DNA from: Catenaria anguillulae PL171
Taxonomy: Eukaryota; Blastocladiomycota; Blastocladiomycetes; Blastocladiales; Catenariaceae
DNA length: 64,000 bases
Direction: 5' to 3'
Assembly: GCA_002102555.1 (NCBI GenBank)
Contig: MCFL01000005.1
Location: 496,001-560,000 of the forward strand
Part shown: one piece after another, positions 1,742-61,590 of the stretch
Layout: each line of letters opens with the position of its first letter
Position numbering within the stretch: the stretch's first letter is position 1
Notes under the pieces: generated by a model
The model's input: only the letters and a program-made list of their open reading frames with translations
Database searches by the model: none
Told to the model about the DNA's origin: nothing
Position numbers and translations under genes: made by a program

Positions 1742-2139
1742 CAGCCTAGGGAAGGAAGGATTTCCTCGGAGGGTACTTTCCCGGCTTCCTTGTCGTTTGT
1801 CGTTGTACAACCCATTGAATACACATGCATTCTGTGCTTATTTGCGAAGGGAAGGGAAGAGCAACCAGTGACGGTGAGTCACTGTTGTTTTGGTGAGACG
1901 GCCCGACAACTCATCAAACACTTATTAAGATTGAATCCATCCTCCATTTCCAATGAATCAACGCAAATGCACCCGAGCAACTTGATGCAATTTGAACAAA
2001 CACCTCCACCCGCCAGCTAGTTTGATGTCCATGGCCAATTGTTGAATCAGTGTCCGGCGCCGGTCCCAAACTTCTTCTCCGGCGTTGATCTCGTCCTGAC
2101 CATCACCCTTCCTCTTTCCTCTGGCCATCGACAGTCGAC
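1742..2139. other. Intergenic, nothing recognised
   Basis: About 400 bases between the MTHFR stop and the next predicted start. Only short open frames without homology are present. It must hold the MTHFR 3' end and the promoter of the downstream gene, but I see no defined motif. Confidence 0.6.
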
Positions 2140-5100
2140 ATGAACGGAAGCGTACCAGATGACCTAGCCAGAAAGATCCAGCGCTACTCGGCACCGTTTG
2201 CCCCGATCGGAACGTGCACCATTGTGTATCCGTCCACAAGTCGCTCGTCCGCAACACCACTCCCCCAACCGCATGAGCAAGGTGGTGACCATGCCCAACC
2301 GACGAGTACAATAAACGACAGCGCTGGCGGCTCAACCATTGAAAACTGGGACGATGTTATCCCAGGCTCAAGCCAAGAGGGCGATCCCAGGGACCGCCAT
2401 CCGCCAACCCCTCGACCCAAGCGGAAAAAGGGGAAACGGTCGCACACTCGTCCATCAACAGCCTCCAGGAAACCCGGCGTCCCTCAATGACACAACCCGC
2501 TCTTGCGATCGCACCTACCTCTTTGTCCACTGAGCCCCAATTGCTCAACCACCACACAAATCCCGAGTCACTATCGGCCTTCGATTTCCCAGTTGTACCT
2601 GGATTGACGGACGGCGGCGATTCAGACGAACCGAGCGATTTGTATGGCGTGAGCGGCACAGCTTTCGAACCCGAACTTGCTCCTATCAAGCCTACCAAGT
2701 ACTATGCTCGCAAGCGCAAATCTGCCGAAGCACAATCGCCCGCTCCGCAGATGCGGCAATCTCCATCATTCGCCACCAGTTCCACGCATGGTTTCAATGT
2801 GGATCGCACACCAAACGCAAGCGATACAGAAGCAGTCGAGCCACTGCTCGCGAAGCGGCCGCGATTGCAGGCAATGCATCCCGCAAGGCGAAGTGTCATC
2901 CGCAGTCCCGAGCAGGACTCATTTCTCGCTGCTCCCATGTCTTCAACGTTCATGCCGCCATTACCTCCGCTTCAGGACTTCCCTTCCGACTCGGGCACGG
3001 ATACAGATCCCGATATCCCCAAGGTGTTTGGACTCGCCGCATTTAACGTGCCACCGCCTCCTCTCGTTCGCCCACAGCTCACGCCCCCGCCAGCCATGTT
3101 GTCATCGCCCATAAGACGTCCACACCCTCCTTTTCCGAAAGAATGGCCCAAACCCCACCTCGCCATAGGTCACCCACGTCATCAGCCATCACAGTCATGC
3201 ATGCCACTGACGATGACGACGATGACCAAGTGATCCCAAGCCCCGTTTCTCCAACTCCTCGTCGACAACCATCCTCTTCCCCACATCGCTCACCTCTCAT
3301 GGATCATTTGCGCCGCATTGGTGGCACTGTCGATGGCCTTTCTCAGCAGCCACTATCCCCACCACCGCCCCAGTCGCCTCCACACTCGCCACTTGCCACA
3401 ATCGACTTGACCACCACCCCTGATTCACCCGTCGGCGACGCTTCAACACGCCGGCGGCCCCGGCGCGCAACAAAACAGGCCGCTCGTGATCGGATCAAGG
3501 GACTGCACCAGCGGTATGGTGACTTTGTGACGCTGCGGGCGCACGAGCGCGGGGTTGCGCCGCGTCCAGATGAAGAGGTCGTTTATTCGCAAGTGTCGGT
3601 GCTGTCACCCGCTGCGGCCGGCGATGGTGGTGACATCCGGTCGGATGATGACCAGAGTGACGGTTTCAAGCAACAAAACGACCCGTCACGTTTTCGCTCG
3701 CCATCGCCCGTGCCTGCACCGCGACCCGTCATGTCGCTCATGTCCACACGCCGCCAACGACAACAAAAGCTCTCCAAACGCCAAGCGCCCGTGGTTCGTG
3801 ACAACCCACGCGACCTCTTTGATCGCATGGTTGTCCACCCGCCGCGTGCATCGACCCGTCGGTCGCCAAAGCGCACGCGCATCGACCGCTTCTTGCACCC
3901 GGAGCCGCTAGACCCAGACTTTGTGCGCGTTGGCAGTCGGTCGGTCAGGACAAACCTTGCAACAACGATGGTTTTGGCTGCAACGCCGACATCCCCGAGG
4001 TCGGCACAGCGCAAAGTGTATGGAGATGTTGGCCGTAAACGGTTTCGTGTGGATCGCGAAACGCAGGACGAGTTGAGGGAGGTGGCGGCCGAAATGCGGC
4101 GCGTCAGAGATCAGCCGGGGGAAGCCGATAAAGTGGTGCGGGCAGTGGTGGAGAGATCCAAGCCAGCATCGAGGAGAAGAGGTGGAGCATCTGGTTTATT
4201 GGTGCAAGAGGACCGTCGCGTGGGTCCAATAATGGCGGCGGGATACGGTTGCCACCGCGGCCAGCAGTTCTCGCAGTGGGCCCAGTCAGCCGCGGTCGCA
4301 GCTCAAAGCCGTCCATCCACCCCGCCGCCGAGTCGAACAGCAGCCCGCAACGGCGGAAGACGACTTGGGCATGCAAGACGATCTCGACGACCGGCCGGAT
4401 CAAATGGCGGCTACCCGCAATCAGCATGGCACCAGCACCACCACCGCTGCTTTTCAGACCGAGGATTTGGCATTCAACACGTTTCAACCGGGTGGACCCA
4501 TGCTCATTCGCCGGGCACGCACATCGGCGAGGGAACGCCGCGATCAATACCAGGCAACGGTCTCCTCTCGCAATGTGCTTGTTAATGCCCTGATTCCACC
4601 GGACTCGTGCATCTTTTCGTTGGTTGCGTTTCTCTCGGGTGACTCTGTCGAGTATGCAGGTGTTCCGCCGGCAGAGTTTGGCGGGCAAGTGCTGAGCGTG
4701 GATTCGGTGGTGGATTACTTGGTGTCATTGAACCCACCAATAGCCCCGAGGGGGCCGGCGCCGCCAACGTTGACGCTGGTCGTTTTTCCAAGCCTTCCGT
4801 TGCTGTGCTACTGGCGCTCACTTCGTTTCTTGATTCCGTCGATTTCGGTGGTTGGAGCGATGCGCGGGAGCGGTTGCTGGATACACTCCGCCGATTGCTT
4901 TTTGATACTGGTGCCCGCATATCACAGTTATCGGCTCTCAACTTCGACCCGGCCTTTGTCGACCTGGTCTCCTTCTACGCTGGGTGGCACTGTGGCTCGC
5001 CTTGCTCAAAGACATGCCCTTGCCCACCACCTTGCGGACAGTCTTGACCAGCATCACCAAATCGTGCCCGGACCCTCTTCGCTCGCCCTTGTTTGATCCA

Positions 5101-8100
5101 TTTCAATCACTCTTACTTCTTTCGCTCGTCGGCGCCTCGTTCCCGACCTTGGACCATGACCCCGGGCACATTGACGCGGCCATCAACGCGGTCTTCATCT
5201 CGATTCTCAGCACCTCGCCGGCCATGACGGACCACGACCAATGGCGCATCATTTGCTTGGCCAAGCCCTTGGCCACGCTATCTCGCCTGCTCGCTCATTT
5301 ATCGCTGGCAAGCCGTGCTCAAGTTTCCGCTCGGCCGGTCCAACATGCAACCACGCCAGGAGTCGCTTGCATTTGCGCACGTGTTTCATTTGTGCCGGCA
5401 GTACATGTGGCCTGTGAACCAAATGTCAAGGACGCCCTTGTCAAGTTTCGTGAGTTGTACATTGAGACGGCGCCGCCGCCGTCAGCTGGGCTAAAGTTGA
5501 TGGACCTGTGCCCACCCGTGGGCGAGTCGCTGCATCCGGCGGACGACGCGCCCGTGCCGGTTTGCTTCCTTTGGCTGTTGGATCAGGTCGTGGACGCGGT
5601 GGAACGAGATCGACTGGTTCGAAGGCTGCTACCAGTCAAGTTTACGGGTGTGCCAGTGACAGCGCAACGGTTGTTGCTTGCATTGTTTTTGCGATCGCAA
5701 CTGGATGTCACGAATCTCGTGTCAAAGTTGGACTTGTCGATTGATTTGGTCTCGGTCGTGCTCCCCGAGCTGCTCGATACTCTCACGGACTCGACCAAGG
5801 ACCAAGCCTTGTATCTCAAGATGCTCGACTTTGCCCTGCTCCGACTCGAGTCGGATTCATTGGTTGAATCGCGGTTGCAAGCACCCCTTATTCGTTTCCT
5901 CGTCCAGGCCCAGGCGCAACGGCCGGCACTTGCCGAAGACTGCTTGCTCGCGCGCCATGCCGTGTTTCGCAAGCTGTTGTCGGCACACATGCCACTGGCC
6001 GTGCGTGCTTCGGCGCTTGAGCTCATGTATGCCATCTTGCGCCGCACGTATCATTGCCGACGCATGCGTTGGTTCTCAAGCAGGCGACGGTTCAGGCTGA
6101 TTCGCAGGATTCATTGGACGAGATGATGGGTTTGAGCGATGATGTGTTTGCAGAGATGTTTGATTCACTCGAGTCAAACTTGTGGAAGGCAGTATGTCAT
6201 TGCTTCTTGCACCCAACCTTTGTTCCCCGGCTGACCAATCTCCGCCCACAGATTGCCGACCGTACCCGTTATCTCCTCGCCATTGTCGAGGGCACCATCT
6301 TGTCCCACAACATCCACCTCAAGGTCCGGGATCTTGACTGGCAGCCCGAATCACTCCCAGCGAGATCAAGACATTTACCGACTTGTACAATGCGGCCATG
6401 ACCGTCGCAGCCATGGCGCTTAAGATTGATTACTTGGCCGACGCTGCTCGCTTCCATGATGCGTTCGACAAGCGGCTTGGCAACCTCCGATGGCCGTCAG
6501 CCGACATTCCGTTGGTGTTTCGGTGTGCTCGCACAATGATTATGGCGATTAAGTGCTTCCGGTTTGGATGCAGGGTACGAGAGTGCATGTTCCTCGATTT
6601 GCACTCGGCATGCATTGCTAAGTTTGGATATCAACTCGTGTGTGACATGTAGCTCCCGCCTGCCAAGCTCGAATCGTTGTTTGGTGTCGTGGCGTTTTCG
6701 GAAGGCGTGGATCATCTTGCAGTTCCATTGTCCATTTCGTTGCTGTTGGATTGTCAGAGCAGTATGCTGTTGCGTGCTTGTGCGAGAAACTTGTCGAACA
6801 TATCAACCATTTCGCGTGCCCTGTTGCTCCAAGGTATGCCACTTCTCGGCTCGGCAATACCCCCGGCCCTTTTACTTACGTTTGCTGCTCCGTTCCTCGG
6901 TGCAGATGTGTTTTGTTGCATCACGCACGACATTCGAACCCGCCGACGAGAGCTACGTTCACTTGTATACACGCTGACCCCTCCACTTCAAGTGCTGGTA
7001 TCCACCGCGGAGCAGTTGACCGTACGTTGCCTTTTAAGGCCGCTTCCTCGACGCACACCCGTTCACATTGAGGTCGCTTCGTATGTAGACCCTATCAAAT
7101 CGTCGAATCAGTCACCTTCATGATCTCATCGCCTTCATTGATCTCGAGGTATCCATTGCCGGCCATCCACTTCCCTCCGACCTCCGGTCGCTTGTCAGCA
7201 AACTTCAAGTCATACAACCGTCAACGGTCCCAATCACTGGCCTTTTGACAGCCATTCAAATCGCCGCAACCCCGGATGTTCTTGCGTCCGTCATTGCCGG
7301 AGGTGTGGGCAACCACCCAGAACTCAAGCAGCTGCTCGATCGGTTCGACTTGTTTTTCGACGAGGGAAAGCGCAATGATCTTGTGGCACAGCTTGTACAA
7401 TTGTTTTGCTCGCGAGCAACCGGTGACATTGAGCGGGTCCACGGCCCGCTAGATCATCGTGCGTGTCTCGGCCACGCCAACCCGCGTGAAAAATGCCCCT
7501 TGTGGAGCCCGCTCAGAACTTTGCTCGTTTGGTACCTTGTGGACCGGCGAATCAAGGGGAGCGTTCATGATGGTCGAGGAACGATGTGCGCCCTGGATTT
7601 CATCTCTGCGAGCTTTCAGCAGCTCGGTGACCGGTGGTGCTTGTCCGAGTTGGACTCGTTGTGGGGTCAATTGAGCCTCTTCTTGATACTCCTACATGTG
7701 CGTCGACCTGGATTATCTTTTGTTCAATCCACTTTATTCACTGGTTTTGAGAGTTTTGCAGGGTCATTCGCAACAGTCCCGTATGGTTGCTAGGTCGGTC
7801 TTTGACGTTGCTTCACTTTGCGCGCATCACAGCTCCTGGCTCGACAACGACTTGTTCTTTCCGGACCAAGGCGCCGTGCTTCCCTTGTCTGTCCCGCGGC
7901 TCGTTTTCCCGTCTGCTGTCGTGCAGCTTGAGCAGTTACTCGGATTCAAGTTTGGTCGCAATCAGTTGTCATTGCAAACGTGGTCCGAGCACGCCCTAGC
8001 TTTTCTGGCACTCAACAACCGCGGCAGCTCATCTGTCCATCGAGAACTGGGAATGCAGGATATGTTGAATGATGGCGCACATAATCAGGTACGTTCACAT

Positions 8101-12432: not shown

Positions 12433-15400
12433 ATGCCTGACAACCCACCTCCCGCCACAGCGGGATCAACAGCTCGACTCCGAACCCGCCACCATCAGCG
12501 GGAGGAGGCGATATGGCCGCAGCCCGCCGGTCCCAGCGACAGCCGACGCGGCGGCGCTCAATAGACCGCTTTCCAGTGCCACTCCTCCAAGTGCTACTCA
12601 GGCGACCGAAGCCTCAAGTTCTGCGGCAGCGGCAACAACAACGGCTGGGGGCCTGACTATCCCCCCAGTTCCTGGTCTCGAAGAAAAGCAACACATCGAG
12701 TCCCTCCTGGCGGCAGCAGAATCCGAGTTTCGATTCACTATCGAGGTCCTACGTGACGACGATATTCTTGCCAAGTTCCGCGTCGAGCACGAAAAACTCT
12801 TCCGATCCCTCACTCGCTCGGTTCTCACGGGTGTCCGCATGTTTGAGCAATACTCGGCGCTCCATCGTACCTTTCACGAAAACGTTAACAATGCGAAAAC
12901 TTTGGGCGAATCCACTTCACACGACGAGCAAACAATTCGCTCGCTTCGCGGGCAAATCAAGCGAGCCAACGAGTTTTTGGAATCGTCACGCGTCAAGGAA
13001 GAAAAGTCAAAGGATGAGCTGCGGCAGTTGCGCATCGAGGTCAACGATTTGAAGGCCACGGTTGCACAAGGTGTGGGACTGTCGGCGGCACAAGAGCGTA
13101 ACATCAATGACTTGGTCAAAATGAAGGAGGAGGCGCTGCGGGACTTGGATACCGAGACGGAAAAGATTGCCCATTTGCGGTCACGCATTGTGGATATCAC
13201 GGATCGAACCAGGACCATGGATGCCGAAAGGCGATCACTTGAGGCTGAGGTGCATACGCTCAAGGAGCGGTGCGCCGCCCGCAAAATGACATTGACGCCG
13301 AAGTGCGCAACAGAGACAACTTGGAAACGGATCTGCGAGAAATGAGGCAAGTCGTGTCTGTCAAGATTGCCGAGGTCAAGCAGAAGCAAGACGCCGTTGC
13401 CCGGGCGCTCGAGGACATTGCCCTATTGCAAAACCAAGTCAAGTCACAAAAGCAAATGCTCGAAAAGATTGGTCGCGACCACGAGTCATTATCCATCAAG
13501 GCAGCCAAATACCGCGCTGAATGCGACCAGCAGGTGGCCATCACCAACGCCTTGACCGAAGAAAACAATGCCTCGTTGCGAGATTTGCAAAAGAAGGAGG
13601 CGGAACTGGCCAAAGTGTCGGACGTGTTGAGCAAGGCTTCCAAGGTCCGGGATGGGTTGCAAAAGAAGATTCGCCTGCTCGAAGCCAAAAAGGGCGACGC
13701 GGAAACGACCATGAAGCTGCTCAAGGACGACACGAATCAGGTTCTCGCGACCATCGACCAGCTGCGGCAAGACGTCGATAAATCCAAAAAGACGCTCGAA
13801 GACCTTTCTCGCGAGCGCAACATTCTGTCGGGCAACTTTTCAAAGCTTGCATCCGACATGGAGCGTGACCAGCATGCACTCCTCCTCCTGCAGCAAACCC
13901 GTACGAATCTGGAGCAGGACCGTATGCAATGTGAGCGATTGCTCGAGCGCAAGACCAGGCAGCTCGAAGAGCTTGAACGGGACAAAGCTGCATACTTGGC
14001 CAAATCTACCGAACTCGCTGAGCAAGCCACTGCCCTCCAGGCAATCATCAAGCAGCGCGAAGCCGAAGTGTATGCACACAAAAAGGCGGTGGTGGAGTCG
14101 GACACGCGTCTCAAGTACCAGCAAAACCTATACGAAACGGTGCAATCCGACCGCAACTTGCACGCCAAGAACCTCGTGGATTCGCAAAATGAGATAGCTG
14201 AAATGAAGCGCCAGCTCAAGATCATGACCTTCACCATCAACGGGCTCAAGGAAGAGTTTACGGCCAAGCAAGAAGCGTTTGCGAGGGAGGTGGCGGATCG
14301 TGAACGGCTCGACAAGGAGATGGAAACCATCAATAACGAAATCAAGACGCTCAAGCACCAAAGCGAGCTGGCTCAAGCATACATTCGCACCCAAGTCACC
14401 GAAGAAAACAAGCTTGCGCAGGATCTCAAGGAGGCCGAGACGGAAAAGCAAAAGCAGGAGCATGCCCTAGCGCTTGTCCTGTCCGAACGCGATCGGCTTT
14501 CTGCGCAACTCATCAAGCAGGATGACGAGCTGCTCAAAGTGTACGATGCCATTAAGGCCAGTCAATTTGCGCTTCTGCGGTCTCAAAAGCACTATCTTGC
14601 CAAACGCAAGCAAAAGCAAGCCCTCGAGCGAAGAGTCCGCGAGCAAGCAAAGGAACGCCGATTGTTGGACTTGGCGACCCAAGATTACGATTTTCTCAAG
14701 AAAGCCGTGTGCCAGCTCAAAGCCGAATTGCTCGAAGAACAGTCGCACATCAAGGTGCTCGCGGATGAAATCAAGAATCCCGTAAACATCCACCGCTGGC
14801 GCAAGCTTGAGGGATCAGACCCGGGACAGCTCGAAACGATTCAGCTCGTCCACTCGCTCCAGCGGACCTTGATTGCCCGTGCGGCCGAAGATGCGGCAAA
14901 AGAGGCCGAGATCCACGAGCGAGAGCAAACGTACTTGCAGCTCAAGGAGATTCATTCGAGGCAGGTTGGGCCCGAGGCGCACGAGCAAGTCGCTGAGCTG
15001 GACACTGTCTTGGCCGACAAGATGGCCAAGCACAAGCACATGCAAACCGAGGTTGAAATGTACCGGGCGCAAATCAACGAGTACAAGTACAAGATGTCGG
15101 GATTAGAGCGGCAGCTGGCCGAGCTAAAGGCGCTCTACTTTGAACGCAAGCGCTTGGACGAGGCCGAGGCAAAGAAAAAGAAGCAAGCTTCCACTTCACC
15201 TCAACACAAGCACAAGCACAAGCACAAAGTTGTTGCCGGCGCAAAGCGAGTGATGGGCGATTCCGAGTTCAACGCGGTGTTAGATGCGTGGGCAGGGGGT
15301 ACTAGTCGAGATGCAGCTGACGCTCGAGCTGACGCAGATGTGGCTCAAAAGACAACTACACCACCAGGTCTACCGCCCCCAGCTTCCCACTCTGCCAGTC

Positions 15401-15801
15401 AAAGGTCCTCTTCCTCACCAGTTACTGGAACCGATCGCGGCCCATCGCCACCATCCATCTCGTCGCGAACGGTCTCGCCCGCGCTCTCCACCTTCTCCGC
15501 AGATGGCGCAAGTGCAGTTGATGTGCGCTCCAATGGTGTGGGTCGAGCCACAAGTGGAGGATCTAGCAGGCAAGTCGTTGAGCTTCCACCGCTTCCCGAG
15601 CATTCGTCGATTGTGTCTCTTCACAGCGAGTCCGACAAAGCAAACTCCAAGAGCAGAGAGGATTTAGTAGGCTTTTCCAGGCCCGAGATGGTCGAATCCA
15701 GTGGCGGTGATGTTCCGGATCAGAAGCGAGATGGAGATCGACCTTTGGTATTTGATCCTCATGTTGCCCAGGCTGTTTTGATAGACAAGTTTTCACTGTA
15801 A
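12433..15801 (+). CDS. CFAP58: Cilia- and flagella-associated protein 58 (CFAP58/CCDC147)
   Basis: Almost entirely coiled coil, an axonemal/intraflagellar-transport-linked protein needed for flagellum assembly. The strongest matches are LKYQQNLYETVQSDRNLHAK, EIAEMKRQLKIM, and NPVNIHRWRKLEGSDP followed by QVGPEAHEQ and AQINEYKYKM, which are family signatures in the right order. The C-terminal ~230 residues add a His/Lys-rich stretch and a low-complexity Ser/Pro tail not typical of animal CFAP58. The ATG at 12433 begins a short frame that must shift into the main frame (open from about 12440) to reach GLEEKQHIESLLAAAESEF; a second shift at 13269-13270 (GG) is restored by one extra G, giving LKERVRRPQNDIDAEV. 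From 13270 to the stop the frame is intact. Identity is secure, the exact start less so. Confidence 0.92.
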
Positions 15802-36083: not shown

Positions 36084-39000
36084 TTACGGCAGCTGCTGTT
36101 CTCGCTTCTTCCCATCCGACAGCGCCGGGAAAGACCCGGCAATGGTGGAATCATTCGACTCGAAAATGTTTTCATCTGTGCATTTGTGCAAGGTGTGAGA
36201 TGAGTGTGCCCTCTTGCAGCGAGGAATGTGTATGAGAAGCATACCAGAACCAAGATCCCCGATCGCAGTTGACTGTCTCAAGCACAGATGGGCCAGCCAT
36301 CCGAACCATTGACGGAAAACAGCATCCTGTTTCGTGCGGAACCAATACGACTCGCCGTTGACTTCAATCTCGAAGCAGTTGCGAACCGCTGCCGACAGAT
36401 TCCGAACTCTGCACTGGTTGAGGTAGAGAACAGTCGCTTCGGCGGGCTGTACAATGGACAATGGACAAGAAAGAGTCAGAACCTCCGGTTCCGACAATCT
36501 TCCAACGAAATCGTGAGCGTACCACAGGCGCTTTGGAAATCACCAAATGATCCGTGAGCGGGTAAAGATGAATCCAGCGTTGTTGAAACGACGCGCGGCG
36601 GACGGATGGGAATCGAACTTGGAAGAGCTCCTTTTGTGGATCAACGATTGATGCGATTGGATTGGCATCTGCAATTGCAACAGCGTCATGTTCTTGGACT
36701 GCCTCCAGTATGGCCGCAGGGGGTGAACTGGGGGCCGAATCTGGAGCACTGGCCTTTGCGTTGATTGCATCAATGCTACTGCTGACGACAGTTCCAACGC
36801 TGCCCGAAACATCCTCTTGTGATGCCTTCTTGGACCCCGGCTCTGTCTGGGCGGAACCGCCCTCGATTGACGATGGATCGTTGCTCCCGTGACGAGCGCG
36901 GGATGCGGCAGATGAAATCATGTCGCGAATGTCTTGGCCAGGGAACGACATGAGCTGATTCGACGACGGAAGCTTGAGATCGAGTCGCGCTGTCTTTTCC
37001 ACACCTGCAATTGCAACGGATGTTGGGCGTCCTGTGGTTCCTCCGCCAAGCGCCGAACTCAAATTGGCTGCAGCGCCTGCTCCAGTCCCCGTCCGACCGC
37101 GCTGGGTGGTGCCGGCCGCAGCACGCCTTGCCGCCGCCTCGACAAACGAGGTCCTTGACGCGTGACACGTCGAGCTTGGAATGCTTGCTTGGCCATAGGG
37201 GTCTCATTGTTCGCACGACGTGATGCGACTTGGCTGTCCTTGTTCGACTGAGATTGGCGTGAAAAGACAGACCCGCGGTTGTTGAGCGCTTCCATGTTGT
37301 TGAGATCCGGTCGGTACACGGCAATGTACACTTTGGAAAAATACAAGAGGTACGTGACCGTGGCATTGACAGTGCAAATGGCACCTGTTTTGAGGACGAA
37401 TCCGACAACGGGGCCAGTGCTTGGGAGCAAAAGGATGGGAATGCAAATGCCCGAAATGAGTGTGATGGCATAGACACCGATACCAATTGACTTGGACTCG
37501 CGGTAGGCGGATTGAGCTCCCCGAGTTCGAATGGCGAGGTAAACCGAGAAGATGAGCAGGGCAGCGTTGTACGACAGAATGAGTGCAAGAAAAGCGTTGC
37601 CATGGCTGCTGGCCAATGAACCCGTGGCGCTGCCGCACGCCCAGTATCGTTCCGTTTGGCCATCCACGATGGTAGGCACAGGAGGATCAAGCGACGTCCA
37701 GAGGGCCATAAGGATGATTTGAATCAACAAAACAGCGGCCGAGTACCGGAGCATGTCGCGATCCGCAAGGCCAACGAGGCGCCCTTTGCGACCACCAGCA
37801 AAGATGAACATGATTCGAAGGGTCTTGGTCATGAGATTGCCCAGCACCATGGACACGGAAATGGCGGCGACCCACGCTTGAGCCGAGCAGGTTTGCTGGG
37901 TTGGGACTCCAAGCGACAGCGGGATAATGAGATATCCCATGATGACACCGGTACAGATAAGCATCCCGAAAAAGTACGACGATGAACGAACGACAGGGGT
38001 GGCTCGGTAGCGAGTCAAAACTGACATGACAATCAACGTGATGAGGACCAAACTCGCAAATGCCGTCAGCGAAATGACACCAAGCGGTGAATCAACTGCA
38101 AGGTAGAACTTTGGTGAGGGTGCGAATGTGGCATCAGTCCACCGAAGTGCGAGCGACGATATGATAATTTCGGAGATATTGACCGGATTGGGAACCGTGA
38201 CTAATGCTGTGAGAGTGGGTCGTTCGGCCAATGCGGCTGAAATCTTTGAAGAGGCCAGCTCGAGTTCCGCAAGCTCCAAGAAGGATCCGCCGACCGTCTG
38301 CAGGGAAATGTTGACTTTGACGGCGCCAGAGGATCGCGAGATGTCGACATTCCGCAGGACGGGAATGCCGCTACCACCTTGTGCGACAAGCAAAGACTCA
38401 AGCTGACTCCCAATCGTTGTGCGTAAGGCCCCATCAATGACCGATGCTGCTGTTCGTGAGACACTGGCTGAGCGGCGTGAGAGCATGGGAACAATGACAG
38501 GCTCGGGAACGTCGGCAAATGACATGAGTCCATCTGAGCGTGGGTTGGGGTCGGTATTGGCGGAATGGGATGGTTGAGGTGCAAGTGGACGGTCGGAAAC
38601 GAAATCAGCGGCAATTGGATCTGAAAAGCGCACATCGGCAGCAGATGCCAACTCAGCCAATCTTGACATTGTACCTGCCAACATTGAAGTAGCCTCCACC
38701 AAGTGCTCGTCAACACTCGTAATCATGAAAGACAGTGTGACAGCGTCGTTGAATCCCTTGCGCAGCCCGCAATCGGTCCCCTCAAACCCAGCTGTGCATT
38801 GACACACGTCGTCGGCAATGCATGATCCTTGACCTTGGATGCAGCCCTTGCTGCAGACTGGGCTTTTGCACACACTGAGCGGCTTCCCATCGGAAGTAAG
38901 CGAGGACTCGGATTGAGCTGGCGAACCCACAGTACCAGTGAGCGAAGCTCCGCGCTGAGATTTCGAGTATGGTACCTCAATCCTCGGCGGCGAACACTGC

Positions 39001-41983
39001 GGGACGACGATAACGCTTGTCACATTGAAAATGGACGAGGGGTGCCGCTCAGTGACTGAGCTGACAGCAATCATGTAGACGCCAGGCGCGGCGATTAGCC
39101 GCACGTTTTGGAAAGTAATCCATTCTTCGAGAATCGCCTTGTACACATCGCCATCTAGCAGTGCATTGGTCGTGGACGTGACGGCGCCATCCCCCTCGTT
39201 ATCAACCTTGCCGATGACTTGGTAGTGCAGCAAGAATGTTTCGTCAGGCATTGAGTGCACGTCTTGGCCGTAGTGATCGGTGGGAACAACACGAAAACTG
39301 GGGACAGAGTCGCCCGAGTTGAGCATGAGAACTTCGATGTCGACCAGTTGCTTGGATTGCTCGTCCGGGACGCGTGCCTCGAGTCGCACAGGCTCTGATG
39401 CAAAGTTGGGTCCTTGGTGTTTGAGAGCGACATTGTCAATGTACTTGTTGCCGTCGTCAAGCTTGACTGGCATGGTGGACGAGAAGACGTAGACAGCGCC
39501 GCCTCGGCCTGCCTCGTTGCGCTCAAATGTGTTACCGGTAAGCTGCGCTTGGGTTGGAACGACCTCCTTGACGTAAATTGCTCCACCGTCGCGGGTGGCG
39601 ACGTTGTTACGGAAAACGGAGTTGGTAATGGCAAGACTGCTGGAAGCAGGCGCCGCTGGCGCAAAGAGCAGAGCACCACCCGTCACAGCCCCAACATTGC
39701 GTGTGAATGCGGATCCTACAATCTCCACAGACCCGCGTGCAATCACTGCCGACCCTTCTGTAGCCAGGTTGTTGGTGAAATTGGAACCCGCAATGGCGAT
39801 TGGAACATTGTCGGTGCCCGAGATGGAAATGGCCGAGTTCTTGATGATATTGCAGTTTTGGACAGAGTTGGACGCTTGAGAATTACCAAAGCCGATGACT
39901 TGCGTTGCAGAGTTGGACATGAATGTAGACTTGTTGATGGTAAATGAGGCACCGGCAAATGTTCCCATCAAGTTGAGCAAACGATCGTTGGGAGATCGAG
40001 CAGAAACGGTGTTACTGATGAATGTCGAGTTGGACACGAGCACAGATTCCCCGTAGGACTGAACTAATCCACCTGACTCGATGATGTTGCCTGGTAGAAT
40101 GAGACGCTGTGAGGAAAATTTCCTTGGGGAGATGACCGATGTACATGAGATTCACACCTGAGAAGCGCGAGCTCGTCAAGTTGAATGCGCTTGCCCTATC
40201 CGCGACGACAAGGTAGGTTGCGGCGCGATTGTTGGTGAAAGACACTCCATCAAATTCGGCGCGAATGCCTTGAGCGACGTAAAATGCACTCGGTCCTGGG
40301 AAGACATTGTCTGGGGGGGGGGATGCAGCATGTGAGTTGGCAAGCATGTACGCGATTGTAGAAAGGGCGCTTGGTGAAACCTTTGATTACAGTGTTCCTG
40401 ACTCGAAGCGAGGAGGCCATGTACACGCCAGCCACCCAACCTTGGGAATTACCTGAAAAACAGACGCGTTAAACAATCGTTAGGGTCAGGGCGCAAGAAG
40501 AGCGGCACGCTCAAATGAGGAACCAATACCTGATACTTCCGAATCTGCAATCGACACGCGAGCAGTTTCACTGATCTGCACGATTCGAGGTGTTCCAACA
40601 TGATTGGAAATGGTGCAGCGGGTCAAATCGACAACGGATGAGCCAGCACAGCGCAGAGCCATGATAGCAGCGCCAGAATTGCCACTGATCTCGGTATCCC
40701 TGAATAACCCCGACCATGGATAAAGGAAATGGCGCCAGTTTGACCACCCGAGTTACCTGGAACCAGGGTAACGGCATCCACACATGTCAGCCGAGTAGTT
40801 GAACAATTGCACCAAACAAACGCACCTGTAAATGTACAGCGGTCATAGAGCGCGGTCGCGCCGTTGACGAGCATGACTGTAGCCTGATTGGAAATCATTG
40901 GCGAAGTATTGCCTAGAGAATTGAATGGTCCCACGTCAGTTTGATAACGTACAAAGTCTTTTTGTCCGGGAATGTGCTACACGCACGAGAGAAAGAAGAG
41001 CGTGTGAATTGGGCCAGTGAGGCATCGCGGATCGCGAATGCCATGTTTCGATTCTCTGTAAATCGTGTGCGTCGAAACGTTAGAAACGGCTCAGGCGCCT
41101 ACGCCGTCGAGAGAAAGTAAGTCGTTATCGTACGGATGAACGTTGAATCAACTACGGTAAGCGTCGCAGCACCATGCGTCCCAATGATGGTGTCTCGCCA
41201 TGCAGCTAGGTTTGAAAACAGGGAGTTGGAAATCATGACCGAGGCATCCTCAAATGCTCGAATCTCTGTCCACAACACTACACAAGGCCAGACAACAACC
41301 GTCAGTTCCGCTCCCCGGCCGCGACTAGAGGAAAAACATATGCAGGCGCCACACCATCATTGGAAACGACCGCAACGTTTGAAAAAGATATGCGTCCAGA
41401 GCCCTTGCCAACTGCAACAAAGGACGCCGCCGTGGCACCATTGTCACGAATGACAGCTCAGAGAAGGATAGAGATGATAAGGAGTTCACTTCAAACAAGG
41501 ACCAAGTGGACGTGGTCGACCGAGTTGCTGCTGGGAACCCAAAGACAGTGATCCCGCGAAAAGTGAGACTGATAGGGCCCTGGAGTTGGAACACAGGGCC
41601 TGTTGTTGCATTTTGGCTTGATCGAGCAATGTTGGGTGCGATGACTACACTTGAAAACAGCGACTGCGGAGACGGGAAGCCAGCTTCAGGCCATGTGTAT
41701 GGTGCGACTGGCTGATGTGTGATCGTGATTGGAAGGCCGTCTGTTGGGACGGCGAGGACATGGGCGCTGTCGAACGGAAGCAAATGGGTCCCTGCTTGAA
41801 TCTGGATCGTCACATTCCTACGCGAAGTGATTGCATATGCCCATGCGCTTGGAAGGTCTGCAAAGTCGGCGCTTGGCCCTGGCCCGACAACGATCGTTGC
41901 ACGAGCAACGCTGGCTGCCGCAATCACGAGGATGAGGATTAGTCCCACCGCCTTTCGGGCAACCGTCGAAAAATGAGAGCCAT
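36084..41983 (-). CDS. Class C 7TM receptor with beta-helix/EGF ectodomain and C-terminal PH domain
   Basis: A predicted plasma-membrane receptor, family member not recognised. The start at 41983 (MALIFRRLP) joins, with one extra C at 41957-41959, a signal peptide KAVGLILILVIAAASVARA. The ectodomain (to about 39450) is a right-handed beta-helix with PMP-like repeats (SNFTNNLATEGSAVIARG, FRNNVATRDGGAIYV, FERNEAGRGGAVYVFSS), interrupted by introns upstream of 40043. An EGF-like module follows (CSKGCIQGQGSCIADDVCQC...GFEGTDC). The 7TM part (about 38080-37300) has class C hallmarks: VVRSSSYFFGMLICTG, LMTKTLRIMFIFAGG, and TYLLYFSKVYIAVYRPDLNN. After an Ala/Ser-rich tail comes a PH domain: ELFQVRFPSVRRASFQQRWI, HLVISKAPV|PAEATVLYLN, NCFEIEVNGESYWFRT, and the final helix FRQWFGWLAHLCL. 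Introns in the PH part (donors GTACGC, GTATGC) fit exactly. A frame change near 37150 lies between 7TM and PH. Confidence 0.8.
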
Positions 41984-48257: not shown

Positions 48258-51200
48258 ATGTCCAACCGGTAAGCCCGCTTTACCCCTGAGCCACTCACCG
48301 TCCAGGTGAACGACTGACTGAATACACGCTGATCGCTCCCTCGCAGCACTTACAACGACATTTGGCGAGACCTGTCATCGGAAATCGCCGAACAGCAAGA
48401 GTATGAGAGCCCGAAAGACCCGGCTCTCGTCCCCAAGGACCGCGAAAGTGCCCTGATTCACTTGTCCGTGTTGTACGCCAAGTATGTGCGCATGTTCCAA
48501 AAGCTCGAGACCACACATGATCAGGTCGTACACCCGCAGAAGCGGCGGTTGTTGAGGGACATGCTGATGGCATTGACGGGAAGGCTGCTAGAGTTGAAGA
48601 TGGTATGTACTGAATTCCTGGCCGTAACGTTTGTGGCGGCCGTTGGGAAAGAAACTGGCTGACGTGCAAGGTCCTCAGCAAATGTACGAACTGGACGCGA
48701 CAGACTTTCCAAATATGGAAGCAGTGTACCACGATTTGAAGCTTGTACCCGAAGATTTGGTGGTTTCGATCCCCAAGTGCTTTGTGGAAGAGCGAGCCAA
48801 AGTGCTCAAGGAGCGAGAGCAAATGCTGGTACGTCCGTTCATCGCACCGCAGTTGTCTTCCGAACCCGGTCAAGACTTGACCGTCACACCCAAAACCTGT
48901 GCAGGACACCAAAGGAGCCAGGCCGCTTGACATGGAAAACAAAATCGCATTTCCGGAACTCACCCTTGAAGAAGCCATTCTGATCTTGCAACGCAACGAA
49001 CGTGGCCGACAAGGTCGCATTCGTGCCAAATACATGCGCGATATCCGGTCCGAGTTCCTTTCTCACCTACCACCCCACCATCCTCTGGTCCACCTGGCTT
49101 ACTTCCCGTCTTGCTTGCCAACAGATTGCAAGAAGACCAAGACGCCGACATGGACGGCATGCACGACGAATCGCAAATCGCATCTGCTGTACAAAAAATC
49201 CAGCGCATGTGGCGCGGGTTTGTTGGCCGCAAGCGCGCCAGCCTCGAGCGCCGCAAGGAGTCCGAGTTTCTTGGCCTGTCGCTGCTCCCGTCGCACAAGG
49301 AGCGGTCCATTGCACAGTTCAACATAAAGCGCAGGAAGGACATTCAGGTGCAGCACGAGGAGGAGTATCAGCAAGCCCTCATCAGCATCAAGGAAAAGTA
49401 CGCATGTTGACCGGAAAACTGGCTGCCTTACTGTCTCTGACGGACTTTTCAACAGGATTCGCAAAGTTGAAGGTCCGGACATGAAGGAATCGTACCAAGA
49501 TGCGTTTCGGCAATGGTACATGGACTCGAAACGCGAGCAAGGAAAGTTTCCCGACTTCCCACCCGACGAGGAATGGAAACTTCCTGACTTCAAGTTTGGC
49601 CAAAAGCCACCCGAGCTTGCCGGCGCGGCCGCCGATGCCAACGCCGCCACCGCCGGCTCGGACGCCAAAGGGTCTAAATCTGGGTCGGCAGGGAAAAAGA
49701 AGCCCGACGCGGCCGCAGCCAAAGGCGGCGCGAAAAAGGGCGGCAAAGATGCTGGGAAAGGCGGGGGCGCTGGTGAAGCTGAGGAGCCCGTGCTCATCAA
49801 TGCCACAAGCAAGTACCTGCAACGGCTGCAGGGCAAGCAGGGCGAGTATATCAAGGAGTGGAAGGAGAAGAATGAGCAGGAAAACTTTGCGCAGCGGCAC
49901 GATGTGGAGATCATCAAGTCGGCCAAGCGGGCAGAGGTGGACGCAGAGATCAAGGACGAGTTGTTTGCAGCGCTGCGGGATGAGTTGGAGAATCTCAAGC
50001 TGGCCATGGAGAAGGATGGCAAAAAGAAGAAGAAGGATGGAGGTGCGAACATTCGTGCCTTTCCACAGAGCGTTTGTTGCCGGCACAGACTGACTTTATT
50101 GGATTGAATCATCGACAGGCAAAAAGAAAAAGAAGGACAAAAAGGCAGGTGGCAAAAAGGGCAAGAAGGAAAAGGATCTGACGGGCGGCCGCCCGCTCGA
50201 AGAGCTCATTGACGAGCTCATTGCGGCTGGTCTCATGCAAAAGCCCACACCTGCCCGCATGCGCGACCTGAAATGCGCTCCGACATTGCTATACAAGGAA
50301 AAACTCAATGCCGAACCCGCCTCGCTCGATGTCCTTCGTGCCATTACCGAGTATGCCGTCCTCCCGCTGGGCATGGACAATGTTGACGACGAAGTGACTC
50401 CAGTTCCGCCGCGCTCCATCTTGCTCTACGGCCCAACCGGATGCGGCAAGTCCATGCTTTGCAACATTGTCGCCAACGAAGTTGGCGCGGCCGTCTTCAA
50501 TTTGTCGCCCAAAACTACCGCGGGCCAATACGTTGGCAAATCCAACGTCGCGCGCATGGTGTACACCGTGTTCAAAGTCGCCAAATTGCTCGCACCGGCC
50601 ATTGTCATTGTCGATGACGCCGAGGCCGTGTTTTGCAAAAAAGTACCAAAGGAAGACACGTCCGACCCAAAACGCGTCCGCAAAGACCTCGTCAAGGCCA
50701 TCAATGGCCTCAAACCAAGCGACCGGGTGCTTGTCATTGGCATGTCGCGCAACCCATTCTACTCAGACGCAAAGGCCATGAGCGATGCGTTCCATCGGCA
50801 AATCTACATTTCCCGGCCAAACTATGCGCTCAGGGAGGTCATGTGGCGCGAGTGGATGTTGGAGCGAGTGTTTTCCGAGTCGCCCGCGGTCCAGGCAGCC
50901 ATTGCGGCCGCGGCCGCGTCGGGCCAGGCGGCGGTTCCACCAGCATCGGGAGCCACAGGTGCAACAGCAAGCAACCCATCTACCACGAATGCCGCCTCGG
51001 GTTCTGCTGGTGGCGAAAAAGACCCGCGCCTCAAGCTGTTCCATGCCCTGCAAACCGCCAACACGAGTGTGCTTGCTCGGTTGTCTGCAGGCATGTCTGG
51101 CGCCATGATCCAGGCGCTCATCAAGCGCACACTGACGCCGCGCCGGATTCGGCAGCTGGATCAGCGGTCGTTGCAGACCATGGAGGTGGTCCATCACATG

Positions 51201-51365
51201 CTGCAACTTGCCGAGCCCGATCGCAAGGTGGAGCAGGATTTCAAGGACTGGACACTCAAGTTGCCCGTGTTCAAGAAGCGCGAGATTGTGCTTGGACTGG
51301 TGCAGGTGGAGGAGGAAGGGGACGGCAAGGGAAAGGGTAAGGATGCGGGGAAGAAGAAGAAGTAA
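48258..51365 (+). CDS. IQCA1: Nexin-dynein regulatory complex subunit 11 (IQCA1/DRC11), IQ and AAA domains
   Basis: A component of the axonemal nexin-dynein regulatory complex. Exon 1 codes for 11 bases only (ATG TCC AAC CG, 48258-48268); the intron 48269-48346 joins it to C ACT TAC, giving MSNRTYNDIWRDLSSEIAEQ. Order: helical N-terminus (LIHLSVLYAKYVRMFQKLE, FPELTLEEAILILQRNERGR), an IQ motif AVQKIQRMWRGFVGRKRA, a coiled region with EEYQQALISIKEK and FRQWYMDSKREQGKFPDFP, an Ala/Gly/Lys-rich linker (about 49620-49780), then the AAA module. Walker A is GPTGCGKS. The Walker B position is IVIVDDAEAVF, with DD rather than DE. The C-terminus DRKVEQDFKDWTLKLPVFKK matches IQCA1 well. An Ala/Gly-rich insert sits at about 50900-51010 and the tail is Lys-rich. 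Confidence 0.93.
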
Positions 51366-53078: not shown

Positions 53079-54659
53079 ATGACCGTGTCCACTGCACCCA
53101 ATCACGGATCAAGCACGCCCACCGGCGCTGGCCCAACCCGCTCGCCCGCCGGCCACCTCGACCTGTCGCCGTCGGCACCCCTGCTTCTCAACCCCAAGAC
53201 ACGCACCTACACCCAGCAATTTGCCAATCTCTACTTCAACCGCCTCACGTCCCTGCGCCCACACGTCCACGCCCGCGCCGCCCGCAAATGGCATGCACAC
53301 GCCTCGGCACACGTCCAACGCACCCTCGACATCAAGCCCAACTCGCTCGTCTGGTTCATTGGCACGCTGTACCGTGACATGCCCCTGAAACCCAGCATCC
53401 TCGACGATGTGGCTGCAGAGTACGGATCAGCCCTGCCGCCGCCCAAGCGCGAAAGATTTGGAGCGATCAGGATAAAGTGGCCATAGAGGACGAGTATGGC
53501 CGCGTGGTGCTCGAGGTGGACGAGTACTTGAGCCGAAACTCGGGTGACAAGGCTGTGCCACTAATTACGGGCGTTGTGGCAGCTGTCATTGGGACAGAGA
53601 CCAAATCGGGTGGGTTCCAAGTTGCCGACATGTGCTTTGCCGGGTTGCCTGACCCAGAGCCTGAGCGACCGCTGGCAATGGCGGCGGCCCCAAACAACCA
53701 TCAAGAAGGAGGTGAATGGATTGCGCTTGTTTCCGGCCTGCACTTTGGCTCGCCATCATCCAAACCTCTGCCCCTCATCATGCTCGCACACTACCTCGTG
53801 GGCAACATTGGCACGCCAGACGATCAGCACCTCATGTCCCTAGTCTCGCGCTTGTTTATCCTGGGCAACTCCATCTCGGTCGCCGAAGACCCGGCATCGT
53901 CGGCCGCCAACACAACAGCGACCACTACTGCCGATGATGCATATGCAACACTCGATGCGTGCCTTGGATTGATTGCCAAATCCATGCCCATCACGCTTCT
54001 GCCAGGCGCGGACGATCCGGCAACACACTTGATGCCGCAACAGCCAATGCACAAGTCGCTCTTCATGTCTGCTGTCAATGCCGGCGAGGGCAGGTTCAAG
54101 TCGGTGACCAATCCCATGATTGCGGATTGGAATGGGAACAAGTTGCGTGCTGCCATTTCTCCCTTCCTGGCAACCCCCCCCCCTTCCCATTTCTAATTTC
54201 TAACCCAACGCAAACATGTTCACAACCAGCCTGGTGTTTACTTCTGGGCAACCGCTCGACGACGTTTTCAAGTACCTCGACCCGCCCTCGCGCCTGTCGC
54301 TCGCGTGCCACTTTCTCACGTGGCGCCACATTGCGCCCACCGCGCCCGACACACTCTGGTGCTACCCGTACGTGGACAAGGATCCGTTTGTACTCGTGCG
54401 GCGGCCCAAGGTGTTTGCCGTTGGCAACCAGCCGCACTTTGAAACGTGCTTGTATGACGACAATGAGGGAGCCCACGACCATCCGGAGTCGCGCGACCAT
54501 GCCAAGGTCAGGGTGGTGCTAGTGCCCGAGTTTCGCACGTCGGGCCAGTTGGTCTTGGTCAATACCAAGACGTTGGAGTATCATGTGGTCACATTGGATG
54601 TCGACCAAGGAAATGGAGAGCAGGTGGATGATGAGGATGCTATGGATACGTCGGAATAG
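53079..54659 (+). CDS. POLD2: DNA polymerase delta small (B) subunit
   Basis: The regulatory subunit of the lagging-strand polymerase, with an OB fold and an inactive calcineurin-like phosphoesterase domain. Seen in order: RTYTQQFANLYFNRLTSLRP, FIGTLYRDMPLKPSILDDVA, DEYGRVVLEVDEYL, LITGVVAAVIGTETKSGGFQ with VADMCFAGLPDPEPE, WIALVSGLHFGSP, ITLLPGADDPATHLMPQQPM, WNGN, then an intron (54133 to about 54229) with a 10-C tract, and LVFTSGQPLDDVFKYLD, LTWRHIAPTAPDTLWCYPYV, VGNQPHFET. One extra T in TTT at 53457-53459 turns the stop-terminated frame into RERFWSDQDKVAIEDEYGRV, an exact family match. The C-terminus is acidic. Confidence 0.94.
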
Positions 54660-58637: not shown

Positions 58638-61590
58638 ATGGTTCCGTCTCCTGCGCACACCCACTCAACCCCCACCAGAGATATCCCTGCGTCCGAGACT
58701 TCAACATGGACGACCCAATTACGTGCGATGCTCCGACTTCGCATTAGTCTCTTCCAGGCCAACGTGCTCTCTCTCGGTCCCTTCTTTCTCCAGCCCATGA
58801 TTTACATCACCATTGTGTACTCCGCCGCACAATTCAACTCGTACAAGGGGAACTCACCTCGGCTCACATTCAACGGTCCGAGCCAAGTTGGGGCGCCATT
58901 TTACAACGAAACCTTTCCCGACCGAACCTTCATTACCGGCACCGCCGCGGACCCTGTCCTCTCGACGCAAGTGTTTACACGTATCAACAACACATACACC
59001 GCGAATCGCCAACTCGCCGAAGGCAAATGGACCACCGCCATGAACCCCAACTATTGGCATCGCGCCAACACTCTTACTGAAGTGAGCAGCCTCACATTTC
59101 AGTTCCTCGGCTCCGCCCCAATGCCCAAGCTAGCGAGCGGCCACTCGCTGCATCCCGAGCTCAGCCCGCCCCTAATGGGATACCTCGTTCACTCGCTCCC
59201 CACTGCCGAGTCACCGTCCAGTCCTCTTAACATGTCGATTGTCGTCAACATCAACCCCGGATTTAGCGCTACCAAGTTCTCTCCCACAATGCTCAATTCC
59301 TTGACAGATTCGGTTCAACACATCCTTCCTGCCTCATTTGCCAGCTCGATCCGCAATTCAACGAGGAACGCTGTGGATCAACTGGTCAAGTTGCACAAGG
59401 CACGATCGCAAAAAGGAGCCTCGGCTCCATTGGCTCCATGGACTGTCCAGCTGTATGGCGGAAGCGCCTCGTTTCCTGTACCGTTGTCAGAGACATTTGA
59501 CTTGATTGCGTTTGCTATGCCTCCCATTTTCGTGTTCTGCGTGTACGTCCCTTCCACTCCTGCGACTCAACCGTGCGGGCAAGCTTTGAGTCCAAATTGT
59601 ATGGGTATATCTGACCAGACCACACCCGGCACCAATTCTACCCTTCATCGCACACAGCTATCTCATGCTCATGGGTGCAACGCGCAACATCGTCTCCGAG
59701 CGCGTCGACGGCCAGTTTAGCTACTTCGTGACAAACTCGCTCAGGCCGGAAATGTTTTATATTTCCGCAATTGTGGCCTACAGTTATCTGGCTCTTTCTG
59801 TCGTGGTTGTCATGTTTTTCCCGATAGTGAATCTCAGATGGATGTCCACTCTCATTGCGCTCGCTCTCCTGGTTCTCTTTTGCGTCTTTATGGCGTCTCA
59901 GGCCGCGCTGCTCTCCTTCGCATTTTGGAACAAGAATTCTGTCCCGTCTATCCTATACTTGTTTGTGTTCTTCTTGTCGATTGGCCCCCAGATTCTCCAT
60001 CATTTCTTTGGCGGCTCGGTTCGTTGTTAGGTCGGGTTTCTCTCTCACGACTGACTCCGCTATACTCACACAACAGCCACCGCGGTCTTCAGGTCCCATA
60101 CTCCATCGATCTACTTCTCACCTTGGTCTTCCCGTCGTACGCCATTGTTCAATCATTCAACGACATGTCAACTGCAGCCTTCAACGAAGTGCCGTATCGC
60201 GCGTTTGCGTCGCACTTTCCCTTTGCTCTCCTCGCTCTCGTTTCCCACATTGCCATCAACACCTTCTCCGTGTGCCATCTGGCCAGGCGCGATTCCAGGG
60301 TGTCCGTCACGCCGGAGTCTGACTCGAAACGTCCATGTAACCAAGACGACCTTGACATTGAGGCTGCCCATGCCAGCGAAATCGACTTGCCGATGGACCC
60401 GCAAGTTCAAGCCGAAATGGACCGGTTGCGTGCAACGAGCGCCAGCGAAGGCGACGGCACCGGCGACCACGACAGTCAAGACGTGGTTTGTATCAAAGGC
60501 CTGAGCATGTCGTTCCGTAGCGATAACGGCCGCGGACCAACACGCCAAGTCCTCAACAACCTGTGGTTTTCCGTGCGCAAATTGGAACTTTTTGCGTTTC
60601 TGGGTCCCAACGGCTCAGGCAAGTCTACGACCATCAACATTCTCACTGGCCTGCTCAAAGCGACCGCGGGAACGGCAACCGTGCGCGGCAAGTCGCCCAA
60701 CGATCCCGAAATCAAGCGGCTGCTGGGCGTATGTCCGCAGTACGACCAGGCGTACCCGCAGCTCACCGTGTATCATCACTTGCGGGCGTTTGCGTACATC
60801 AAAGGTGTGCCCGAGGATCAGATTCAGGAGGCCATTAAGTCGGCGGTGGAGGCGGCAAGTTTGACAGAGTATTTGCATCGTGCCGTGGGAGCCTTGTCTG
60901 GTGGGACGAGACGGAGATTGTCGATTGCGATCGCATGTATTGGACGGCCGGCGGTGGTGATTCTGGACGGTGCGCCAATACTCCGCCTAGCATATGTTTG
61001 TGCCATGACCGAGACTTGACAAACACTTGCTCATGTACCCGCATATAATAGAGCCAACCACAGGCGTTGACGTTGCGACTCGGCGCGCGATTTGGGACAT
61101 GATCTCGAAGCTGAAGGCGCACACGTCAGTCTTGCTCGTGACGCACGACATGGACGAAGCTGAACGATTGGCCGAGCGCGCGGGCATTCTCATCAACGGG
61201 TCGCTCGTGTGCCTTGGGTCGCCGCACCGGCTCAAGTCGCTTCTCGGCTCGGCGTACCTGCTTAAGCTGCAGTTTGGCACCACGGACACGGACGGCAGCT
61301 TGGCTGATCGCGTGCTGGACGACGTCGAGCACAAGTCCAAGGAGTTGATTGCAGGGAGCCGAGCGCGTGTCATGTACCGCGGCCAGTCGCGGATCGAGGT
61401 GGCAGTGGAGAAGGGGCCGGCGTCATTTGTAGATGAAGAGGGCAAGTTTGTGGGAAACCTTCTCAAGTTTGTTGCGAGTCAACGGTATATGTGGCGAGTT
61501 TCGGACTGGTCGCTGGGCGAGGTGTCTCTTGGTGAGCTGTTTGTGCGATTCGCACGTCAGCATCGGGCGTACCAGGAGGAGGAGCTTTGA
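58638..61590 (+). CDS. ABCA-family half-size ABC transporter
   Basis: A predicted lipid or amphipath transporter of the ABCA type, with one TM domain and one ATPase. Exons 58638-59542, 59658-60018, 60093-60969 and 61052-61590 sum to 893 codons plus stop, with clean phases at FVFCV|YLMLMG, HHFFGGS|VPYSI and ILD|EPTTGVD. TM1 (FFLQPMIYITIVYS) is followed by a large extracellular loop with several N-glycosylation sequons, then five more TM segments (from FDLIAFAMPPIFVF to LLLTLVFPSYAIV). In the ATPase: Walker A FLGPNGSGKSTTINIL, Q-loop VCPQYDQAYPQLTV, signature LSGGTRRRLSIA, Walker B VVILDEPTTGVD, and switch VTHDMDEAE. The frame is intact. The ABCA-type C-terminal regulatory domain follows. Start alternatives lie upstream in frame only as non-ATG. 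Confidence 0.92.

What the first reader, a model, noticed from the sequence alone, without database searches (positions are those of the whole stretch)
36084..41983. Receptor fusion: signal peptide, beta-helix/EGF ectodomain, class C 7TM, C-terminal PH domain
The sequence shows PMP-like beta-helix repeats, an EGF-like module, seven TM segments with GABA-B-type class C motifs (KTLRIMFIF; KVYIAVYRPDLNN) and, after a 200-residue tail, a complete PH domain whose two introns splice in phase. Class C receptors normally carry a Venus-flytrap ligand domain and no PH domain. I know of no described 7TM receptor of this order. If the PH domain binds phosphoinositides or G-beta/gamma, the receptor could recruit or feed back on its own lipid signal. 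One frame change (near 37150) lies between the 7TM and PH parts, so the fusion needs transcript proof.
Basis: partly seen in the sequence, partly recalled or inferred. Interest (0 to 1): 0.88.

Follow-up and report, generated by a model that had tools for sequence, protein, structure and literature searches.

The report
PH-tailed class C receptors in fungi
A swimming-spore fungus carries many glutamate-receptor-like sensors with a PH domain (a module that often binds lipids or proteins) built into the cell-internal tail, and this gene is one whose outside part is a beta-helix instead of the usual flytrap.

Summary

The PH tail is not a one-off. In this genome (inferred: Catenaria anguillulae PL171) at least 49 of 121 class C loci have one; in a random sample of previously unfetched loci, 10 of 20. 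Some are single open frames. Allomyces proteins have it too. Most score below Pfam's cut-off, which may be why they were missed. Seven papers searched inside for PH terms describe no such receptor.

Corrections: the 7TM is mGlu-like, not GABA-B-like; the canonical phosphoinositide motif is absent here, though two paralogs have it. New variant of a known kind; function inferred.

The parts
36084..41983 (-). whole gene: beta-helix / EGF / class C 7TM / PH receptor; stop codon at 36084-36086, start unresolved
   Evidence: frame-aware alignment to B. emersonii P0001, ORFs
41898..41954 (-). hydrophobic stretch, probable signal-peptide core; aligned with the N-terminal hydrophobic stretch of P0001
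   Evidence: P0001 residues 19-37; no signal-peptide predictor was run
39396..41897 (-). right-handed beta-helix ectodomain, 5' part split by phase-1 introns
41278..41354 (-). intron, 77 nt, phase 1
41056..41133 (-). intron, 78 nt, phase 1
40913..40986 (-). intron, 74 nt, phase 1
40757..40825 (-). intron, 69 nt, phase 1
40453..40529 (-). intron, 77 nt, phase 1 (split by hand out of a 219-nt gap)
40381..40452 (-). 72-nt exon read by hand as one extra beta-helix rung, not used in the alignment to B. emersonii
40311..40380 (-). intron, 70 nt, phase 1 (split by hand out of a 219-nt gap)
40091..40157 (-). intron, 67 nt, phase 1
37059..40151 (-). uninterrupted 1030-codon open frame: end of beta-helix, EGF, stalk, 7TM
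38769..38870 (-). EGF-like module
   Evidence: Pfam EGF models below cut-off, PDB EGF matches, conserved in P0001
38226..38741 (-). juxtamembrane segment with beta-alpha-(insert)-alpha-beta-beta-alpha order, SEA-like lead only (SEA order recalled)
   Evidence: low-confidence model
37338..38099 (-). class C seven-transmembrane domain (PF00003), mGlu-like
36631..37337 (-). poorly conserved cytoplasmic linker, about 235 residues, with the frame break near 37149
36523..36630 (-). PH domain, first exon part
36447..36522 (-). intron inside PH domain, 76 nt, phase 0
36282..36446 (-). PH domain, second exon part
   Evidence: 63.3 bits with own PH profile, which included this domain
36176..36244 (-). 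possible last intron, 69 nt; also open in frame

Best explanation
This is a gene of a blastoclad fungus (inferred: Catenaria anguillulae PL171) for a class C G-protein-coupled receptor. Its ectodomain is a long right-handed beta-helix plus an EGF module instead of a Venus flytrap, and its cytoplasmic tail ends in a PH domain. It is one branch of a large family of PH-tailed class C receptors found in three blastoclad genera. Most likely mechanism, inferred: the beta-helix/EGF stalk binds an extended ligand, plausibly a glycan or surface polymer met by the zoospore; the 7TM core signals through heterotrimeric G protein; the PH domain, on a long flexible linker, binds an acidic membrane lipid, G-beta/gamma or a small GTPase at the inner leaflet, so that receptor output or location depends on the local lipid or G-protein state. 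Shown by computation: domain order, PH fold, conservation in an ortholog, recurrence in paralogs. Inferred: ligand, coupling, PH partner, direction of feedback.
Against: Three single-base frame breaks and an out-of-frame ATG mean the copy in this assembly cannot be read as one intact protein; it has no second copy here to compare. No C. anguillulae annotated protein of 717-2280 aa was listed for the 7TM-PH region, though that search also missed the class C protein P0002, so it is a weak negative. The window PH misses Pfam's cut-off and P0001's PH piece gives no Pfam match. The PH search of the protein database found only P0001 itself. The phosphoinositide pattern is absent from this PH. No expression, binding or coupling data. 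The 1030-aa model is low confidence outside the beta-helix (pLDDT 43).
Confidence: 0.62

Rival explanations
1. The window copy is a decaying pseudogene of the PH-tailed receptor; the functional gene survives in relatives only.
For: Single-base frame breaks near 41454, 40704 and 37149 and a start ATG out of frame; no long C. anguillulae annotated protein was listed (weak).
Against: No in-frame stop in 1030 codons; similarity to the ortholog is kept on both sides of each break; five of the six complete internal ectodomain exons are multiples of three and the sixth is one short; the three breaks are of the same sign, as a draft consensus error could be.
Confidence: 0.2
2. Two adjacent genes, a receptor and a PH protein, wrongly joined.
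For: The frame break and a poorly conserved linker lie between the two parts.
Against: One 1717-aa gene model in B. emersonii holds both; single open frames hold both in paralogs L029, L019, L020, L021; PH tails follow class C domains at 49 of 121 loci.
Confidence: 0.03
3. The PH domain is only a protein-interaction or structural module (dimer contact, G-beta/gamma or GTPase docking) and binds no lipid.
For: The pattern (K/R)-Xn-(K/R)-X-R in strands 1-2 (recalled) is absent from the window PH, P0001 and 9 more of 13 tails compared; PH sequences diverge to 10-18% identity from the window's between subfamilies.
Against: Two paralogs, L020 and L021, do hold the pattern; basic residues stand in the first loop of window and B. 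emersonii PH; the closest PDB sequence is the PH of the PI(4,5)P2-dependent ASAP1, which is no proof.
Confidence: 0.35
4. The beta-helix part is an adhesin that anchors the zoospore or germling, and the 7TM core works as a contact or force sensor in the style of adhesion receptors rather than a chemosensor.
For: Beta-helix plus EGF plus a low-confidence SEA-like order before TM1; PMP-like repeats below or near cut-off.
Against: The 7TM is class C, not adhesion class; no GAIN/GPS match in Pfam.
Confidence: 0.3

Closest known systems
Metabotropic glutamate receptors (class C, PF00003)
   Same: 7TM domain; mGlu7/mGlu4 best in PDB
   Different: beta-helix/EGF instead of a Venus flytrap; C-terminal PH domain
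Fungal 'Glutamate family' receptors of Allomyces, Spizellomyces and others (PMC3251606 and PMC12842992, passages seen)
   Same: large class C sets in zoosporic fungi; 78 reported in A. macrogynus
   Different: the passages describe N-terminal domains only; 'PH domain' and 'pleckstrin' do not occur in either main text
GPCR-PIPKs and other oomycete GPCR-bigrams (PMC5784254, PMC6033456, passages seen)
   Same: a 7TM receptor with an intracellular C-terminal domain linked to phospholipid signalling
   Different: their accessory domain is catalytic; that they are another 7TM family is recalled; GPCR-PIPKs are reported to seem absent from fungi; PH is non-catalytic
Rhodopsin-guanylyl cyclase of Blastocladiella, Allomyces and Catenaria (PMC4046227, passages seen)
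   Same: blastoclad membrane sensor fused to an intracellular signalling domain
   Different: microbial rhodopsin with a cyclase
Right-handed beta-helix polysaccharide lyases (PL6 and relatives)
   Same: fold of the ectodomain
   Different: enzymes; no catalytic activity was tested or is implied here

Membership tests
Class C (glutamate family) GPCR | 7tm_3 domain over its whole length | tested here: met
   PF00003 positions 2-248 of 251, 147.7 bits, cut-off 33.5
Class C (glutamate family) GPCR | Venus-flytrap ligand domain (usual, not universal; recalled) | tested here: not met
   no PF01094 match in the six window pieces scanned or in P0001; relatives P0002-P0005 have it
Class C (glutamate family) GPCR | G-protein coupling | not testable with these tools
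   only presence of G-alpha matches shown
PH domain | seven-stranded barrel capped by a C-terminal helix | tested here: met
   model of the B. emersonii domain with the window exons as rows; 50 of 50 listed PDB rows PH
PH domain | Pfam gathering score | tested here: not met
   window PH 17.6 of 25.1 bits; three paralog domains cut out alone reach 25.2-28.8
Phosphoinositide-binding PH | (K/R)-Xn-(K/R)-X-R pattern in strands 1-2 (recalled) | tested here: not met
   absent in window, P0001 and 9 others; present in L020 and L021; 2 of 13; other lipid sites are not excluded
GPCR-bigram (oomycete type) | catalytic C-terminal domain | tested here: not met
   no enzyme domain over Pfam cut-off in the tails scanned (F420H2_quin_red at 17.5 of 22 bits in P0001's linker taken as chance); PH is not catalytic
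Right-handed beta-helix | parallel beta-helix fold | tested here: met
Adhesion GPCR | GAIN domain with GPS | tested here: inconclusive
   no Pfam match; juxtamembrane part poorly modelled

The most novel reading that the evidence does not exclude
A PH domain is an ancestral, built-in part of the class C receptor in Blastocladiomycota: the receptor expansion carries its own lipid or G-beta/gamma reader in the tail, so each receptor senses an outside ligand and the state of the inner membrane leaflet at once. The beta-helix branch extends this coincidence detector to surface polymers met by zoospores.
Probability: 0.35. Interest if true: 0.85.

Novelty: new variant of a known kind. Interest (0 to 1): 0.72.

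Why it matters
[quoted passage not shown] I saw no account of how these fungal receptors signal. A PH domain in the tail of at least 40% of the class C loci of one genome gives a direct, testable handle: express the PH, find its partner, remove it in a saprobic relative (B. emersonii). It also shows that tail domains of a whole receptor family can stay hidden because most score under the Pfam cut-off, and it gives a fungal parallel to the oomycete and amoeba receptors that carry a phospholipid kinase in the tail.

Tried and rejected
Rejected: the GABA-B label; chance neighbourhood of 7TM and PH; two separate genes. Considered and not settled: pseudogene or assembly error.

Led nowhere or went against the reading: Pfam on the whole spliced tail gave no PH; on P0001 whole or as a PH piece none; phmmer of the single PH against PDB none; the PH-region search of the protein database found only P0001 itself at E up to 10 among 110 candidates; neither the search (1 protein of 8000 scored) nor that (4 of 8000) listed any organism outside the blastoclads, but both score only the candidates that share most words. 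Pfam sees no PH in L013, L019, L021, L018, L012, P0002 or P0005 at the limits used. The paralog L065 (one 1394-aa open frame with beta-helix, EGF and a 7TM at 35.0 of 33.5 bits; copies on C414 and C236) ends in a PH-like sequence that is not proven: own profile 1.6 bits, E 0.016, hhalign probability 0.4, no Pfam match; it is not counted as a PH tail. No PH was found at 10 of 20 sampled loci or at the eight loci that one search lists as covered and negative (L002, L004, L006, L008, L028, L040, L052, L065). The 49 loci include duplicate contigs, and the profile was built partly from these loci. The tree is midpoint-rooted, with long branches and open forks. The 1030-aa model is poor outside the beta-helix. 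My notebook (entries 2 and 3) says the rung introns all cut at G|N; one search corrects this (N follows in 6 of 7, the split residue is G in 3 of 7).

Literature: ten searches, of which I saw the listings; seven papers searched inside, passages seen: PMC3251606, PMC12716839, PMC5784254, PMC6033456, PMC12842992, PMC4046227, PMC8834376. In these, 'pleckstrin' occurs only inside the DEP domain name where passages were shown, and 'PH domain' once, in a reference on GRK2. Other listed papers were not opened. Subscription papers are not held.
Full report
WHAT IS THERE. The window is 64 kb of a 41.07-Mb, 457-contig assembly. It is very probably Catenaria anguillulae PL171 (Blastocladiomycota): the database protein P0002 of that strain lies on a contig of 602,005 bases, the length of this assembly's C2, and covers 100% of the query region at 94% identity. 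This identification is an inference. On the minus strand, one open frame of 1030 codons (37059-40151) holds the end of a beta-helix, an EGF-like module and a class C 7TM domain (PF00003 positions 2-248 of 251, 147.7 bits, E 6.1e-43). In the PDB the closest sequences are mGlu7 and mGlu4 (E 4.8e-25 and 1.7e-24); GABA-B2 follows at E 2.7e-13. The label GABA-B type is therefore not supported.

NOT A ONE-OFF. In the same genome, 150 scored PF00003 matches (of 169 candidates) fall into 121 loci by my clustering; some are near-identical duplicates on other contigs. Four of 36 PF00169 matches lie within 3 kb downstream of such a locus on the same strand, none upstream, 0.16 expected; two of the four are near-duplicates of each other. 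Single open frames hold a near-complete 7TM and a PH in L029, L019, L020 and L021; in L041 one 430-codon frame holds the second half of the 7TM (43.3 bits) and a PH at the Pfam cut-off (25.1 bits), the first half lying in an overlapping frame. Used as a query, that frame finds PH-part matches at 39 places, 36 of them at or just downstream of a class C locus. An own profile of the tails adds more; the union is 49 of 121 loci, and all 43 profile matches (E up to 0.001) in the 54 fetched pieces scanned lie downstream of a class C domain on its strand. This profile was built partly from these loci. The fairer figure is a random sample of 20 of the 88 unfetched loci: 10 of 20 have a sense-strand match at E below 0.001, none antisense, none in control DNA from the window. 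Annotated proteins of C. anguillulae (P0002), Allomyces javanicus (P0003, P0005) and A. arbusculus (P0004) combine a Venus-flytrap domain, the class C 7TM and this tail; Pfam sees the PH weakly in P0003 and P0004 (E 0.017 and 0.012) and not in P0002 and P0005. In a midpoint-rooted 17-row 7TM tree, PH-tailed receptors lie on both sides of the first split (99/97), so the tail is either old or was gained more than once.

HOW IT PROBABLY WORKS. Shown: domain order, folds, conservation, recurrence. Inferred: the beta-helix/EGF part meets an extended ligand, plausibly a glycan; the 7TM core couples to a G protein (PF00503 over its cut-off on 15 contigs, some duplicates); the PH, on a linker of about 235 residues, reads an inner-leaflet lipid, G-beta/gamma or a small GTPase. 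The phosphoinositide pattern (K/R)-Xn-(K/R)-X-R (recalled) is absent from the window PH and P0001 and present in 2 of 13 tails, L020 and L021, so lipid binding is open and may differ between branches. I put the architecture at about 0.93 and the lipid/G-protein reader mechanism at about 0.4; the stated 0.62 covers both.

WHAT IS KNOWN. Krishnan et al. 2012 (PMC3251606, passages seen) report 78 glutamate-family receptors in Allomyces macrogynus and describe N-terminal domains; a December 2025 survey (PMC12842992, passages seen) finds them enriched in Blastocladiomycota and Chytridiomycota. 'Pleckstrin' and 'PH domain' do not occur in either main text. A 2025 survey of close relatives of animals (PMC12716839, passages seen) has 'pleckstrin' once, within the DEP domain name. 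Oomycete GPCR-PIPKs (PMC5784254, PMC6033456, passages seen) are the nearest idea: a receptor with a phospholipid-related tail, but catalytic, and reported to seem absent from fungi. The listings of ten literature searches named no PH-tailed class C receptor; most listed papers were not opened.

VERDICT. Observation confirmed with corrections; interpretation partly supported. The single gene is a beta-helix member of a large family of PH-tailed class C receptors that I did not find described. New variant of a known kind.

Noticed in passing
L065 (G000:C414:406200-412900), 1895-6079; copy on C236: A second beta-helix + EGF + class C 7TM gene in one 1394-aa open frame, with an unproven PH-like end.
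   Followed up: partly
window 38741-38226: Stalk before TM1 modelled at low confidence in a SEA-like order (beta-alpha-insert-alpha-beta-beta-alpha).
   Followed up: partly
window 41354-40091: Beta-helix rungs are coded by mostly symmetric phase-1 exons, with one extra rung exon against B. emersonii: a possible case of rung gain by exon.
   Followed up: partly
window 13249-15798 (+): CFAP58 central coiled coil (PF21771, E 3e-43), a cilium gene by recall, fits a zoosporic fungus.
   Followed up: no
window 50094-51362, 53378-54193, 59721-61016 (+): AAA ATPase, DNA polymerase alpha/epsilon subunit B with polymerase delta OB-fold, and ABC transporter open frames.
   Followed up: no
own genome, PF00503 search: G-alpha matches over the cut-off on 15 contigs, some duplicates; not resolved into genes.
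   Followed up: no
G000:C1:451863-452306, C142:24856-25155, C2:333797-334096: Three matches to the PH part of L041 with no PF00003 match within 2.5 kb upstream: broken receptors, missed 7TM exons or free PH relatives.
   Followed up: no
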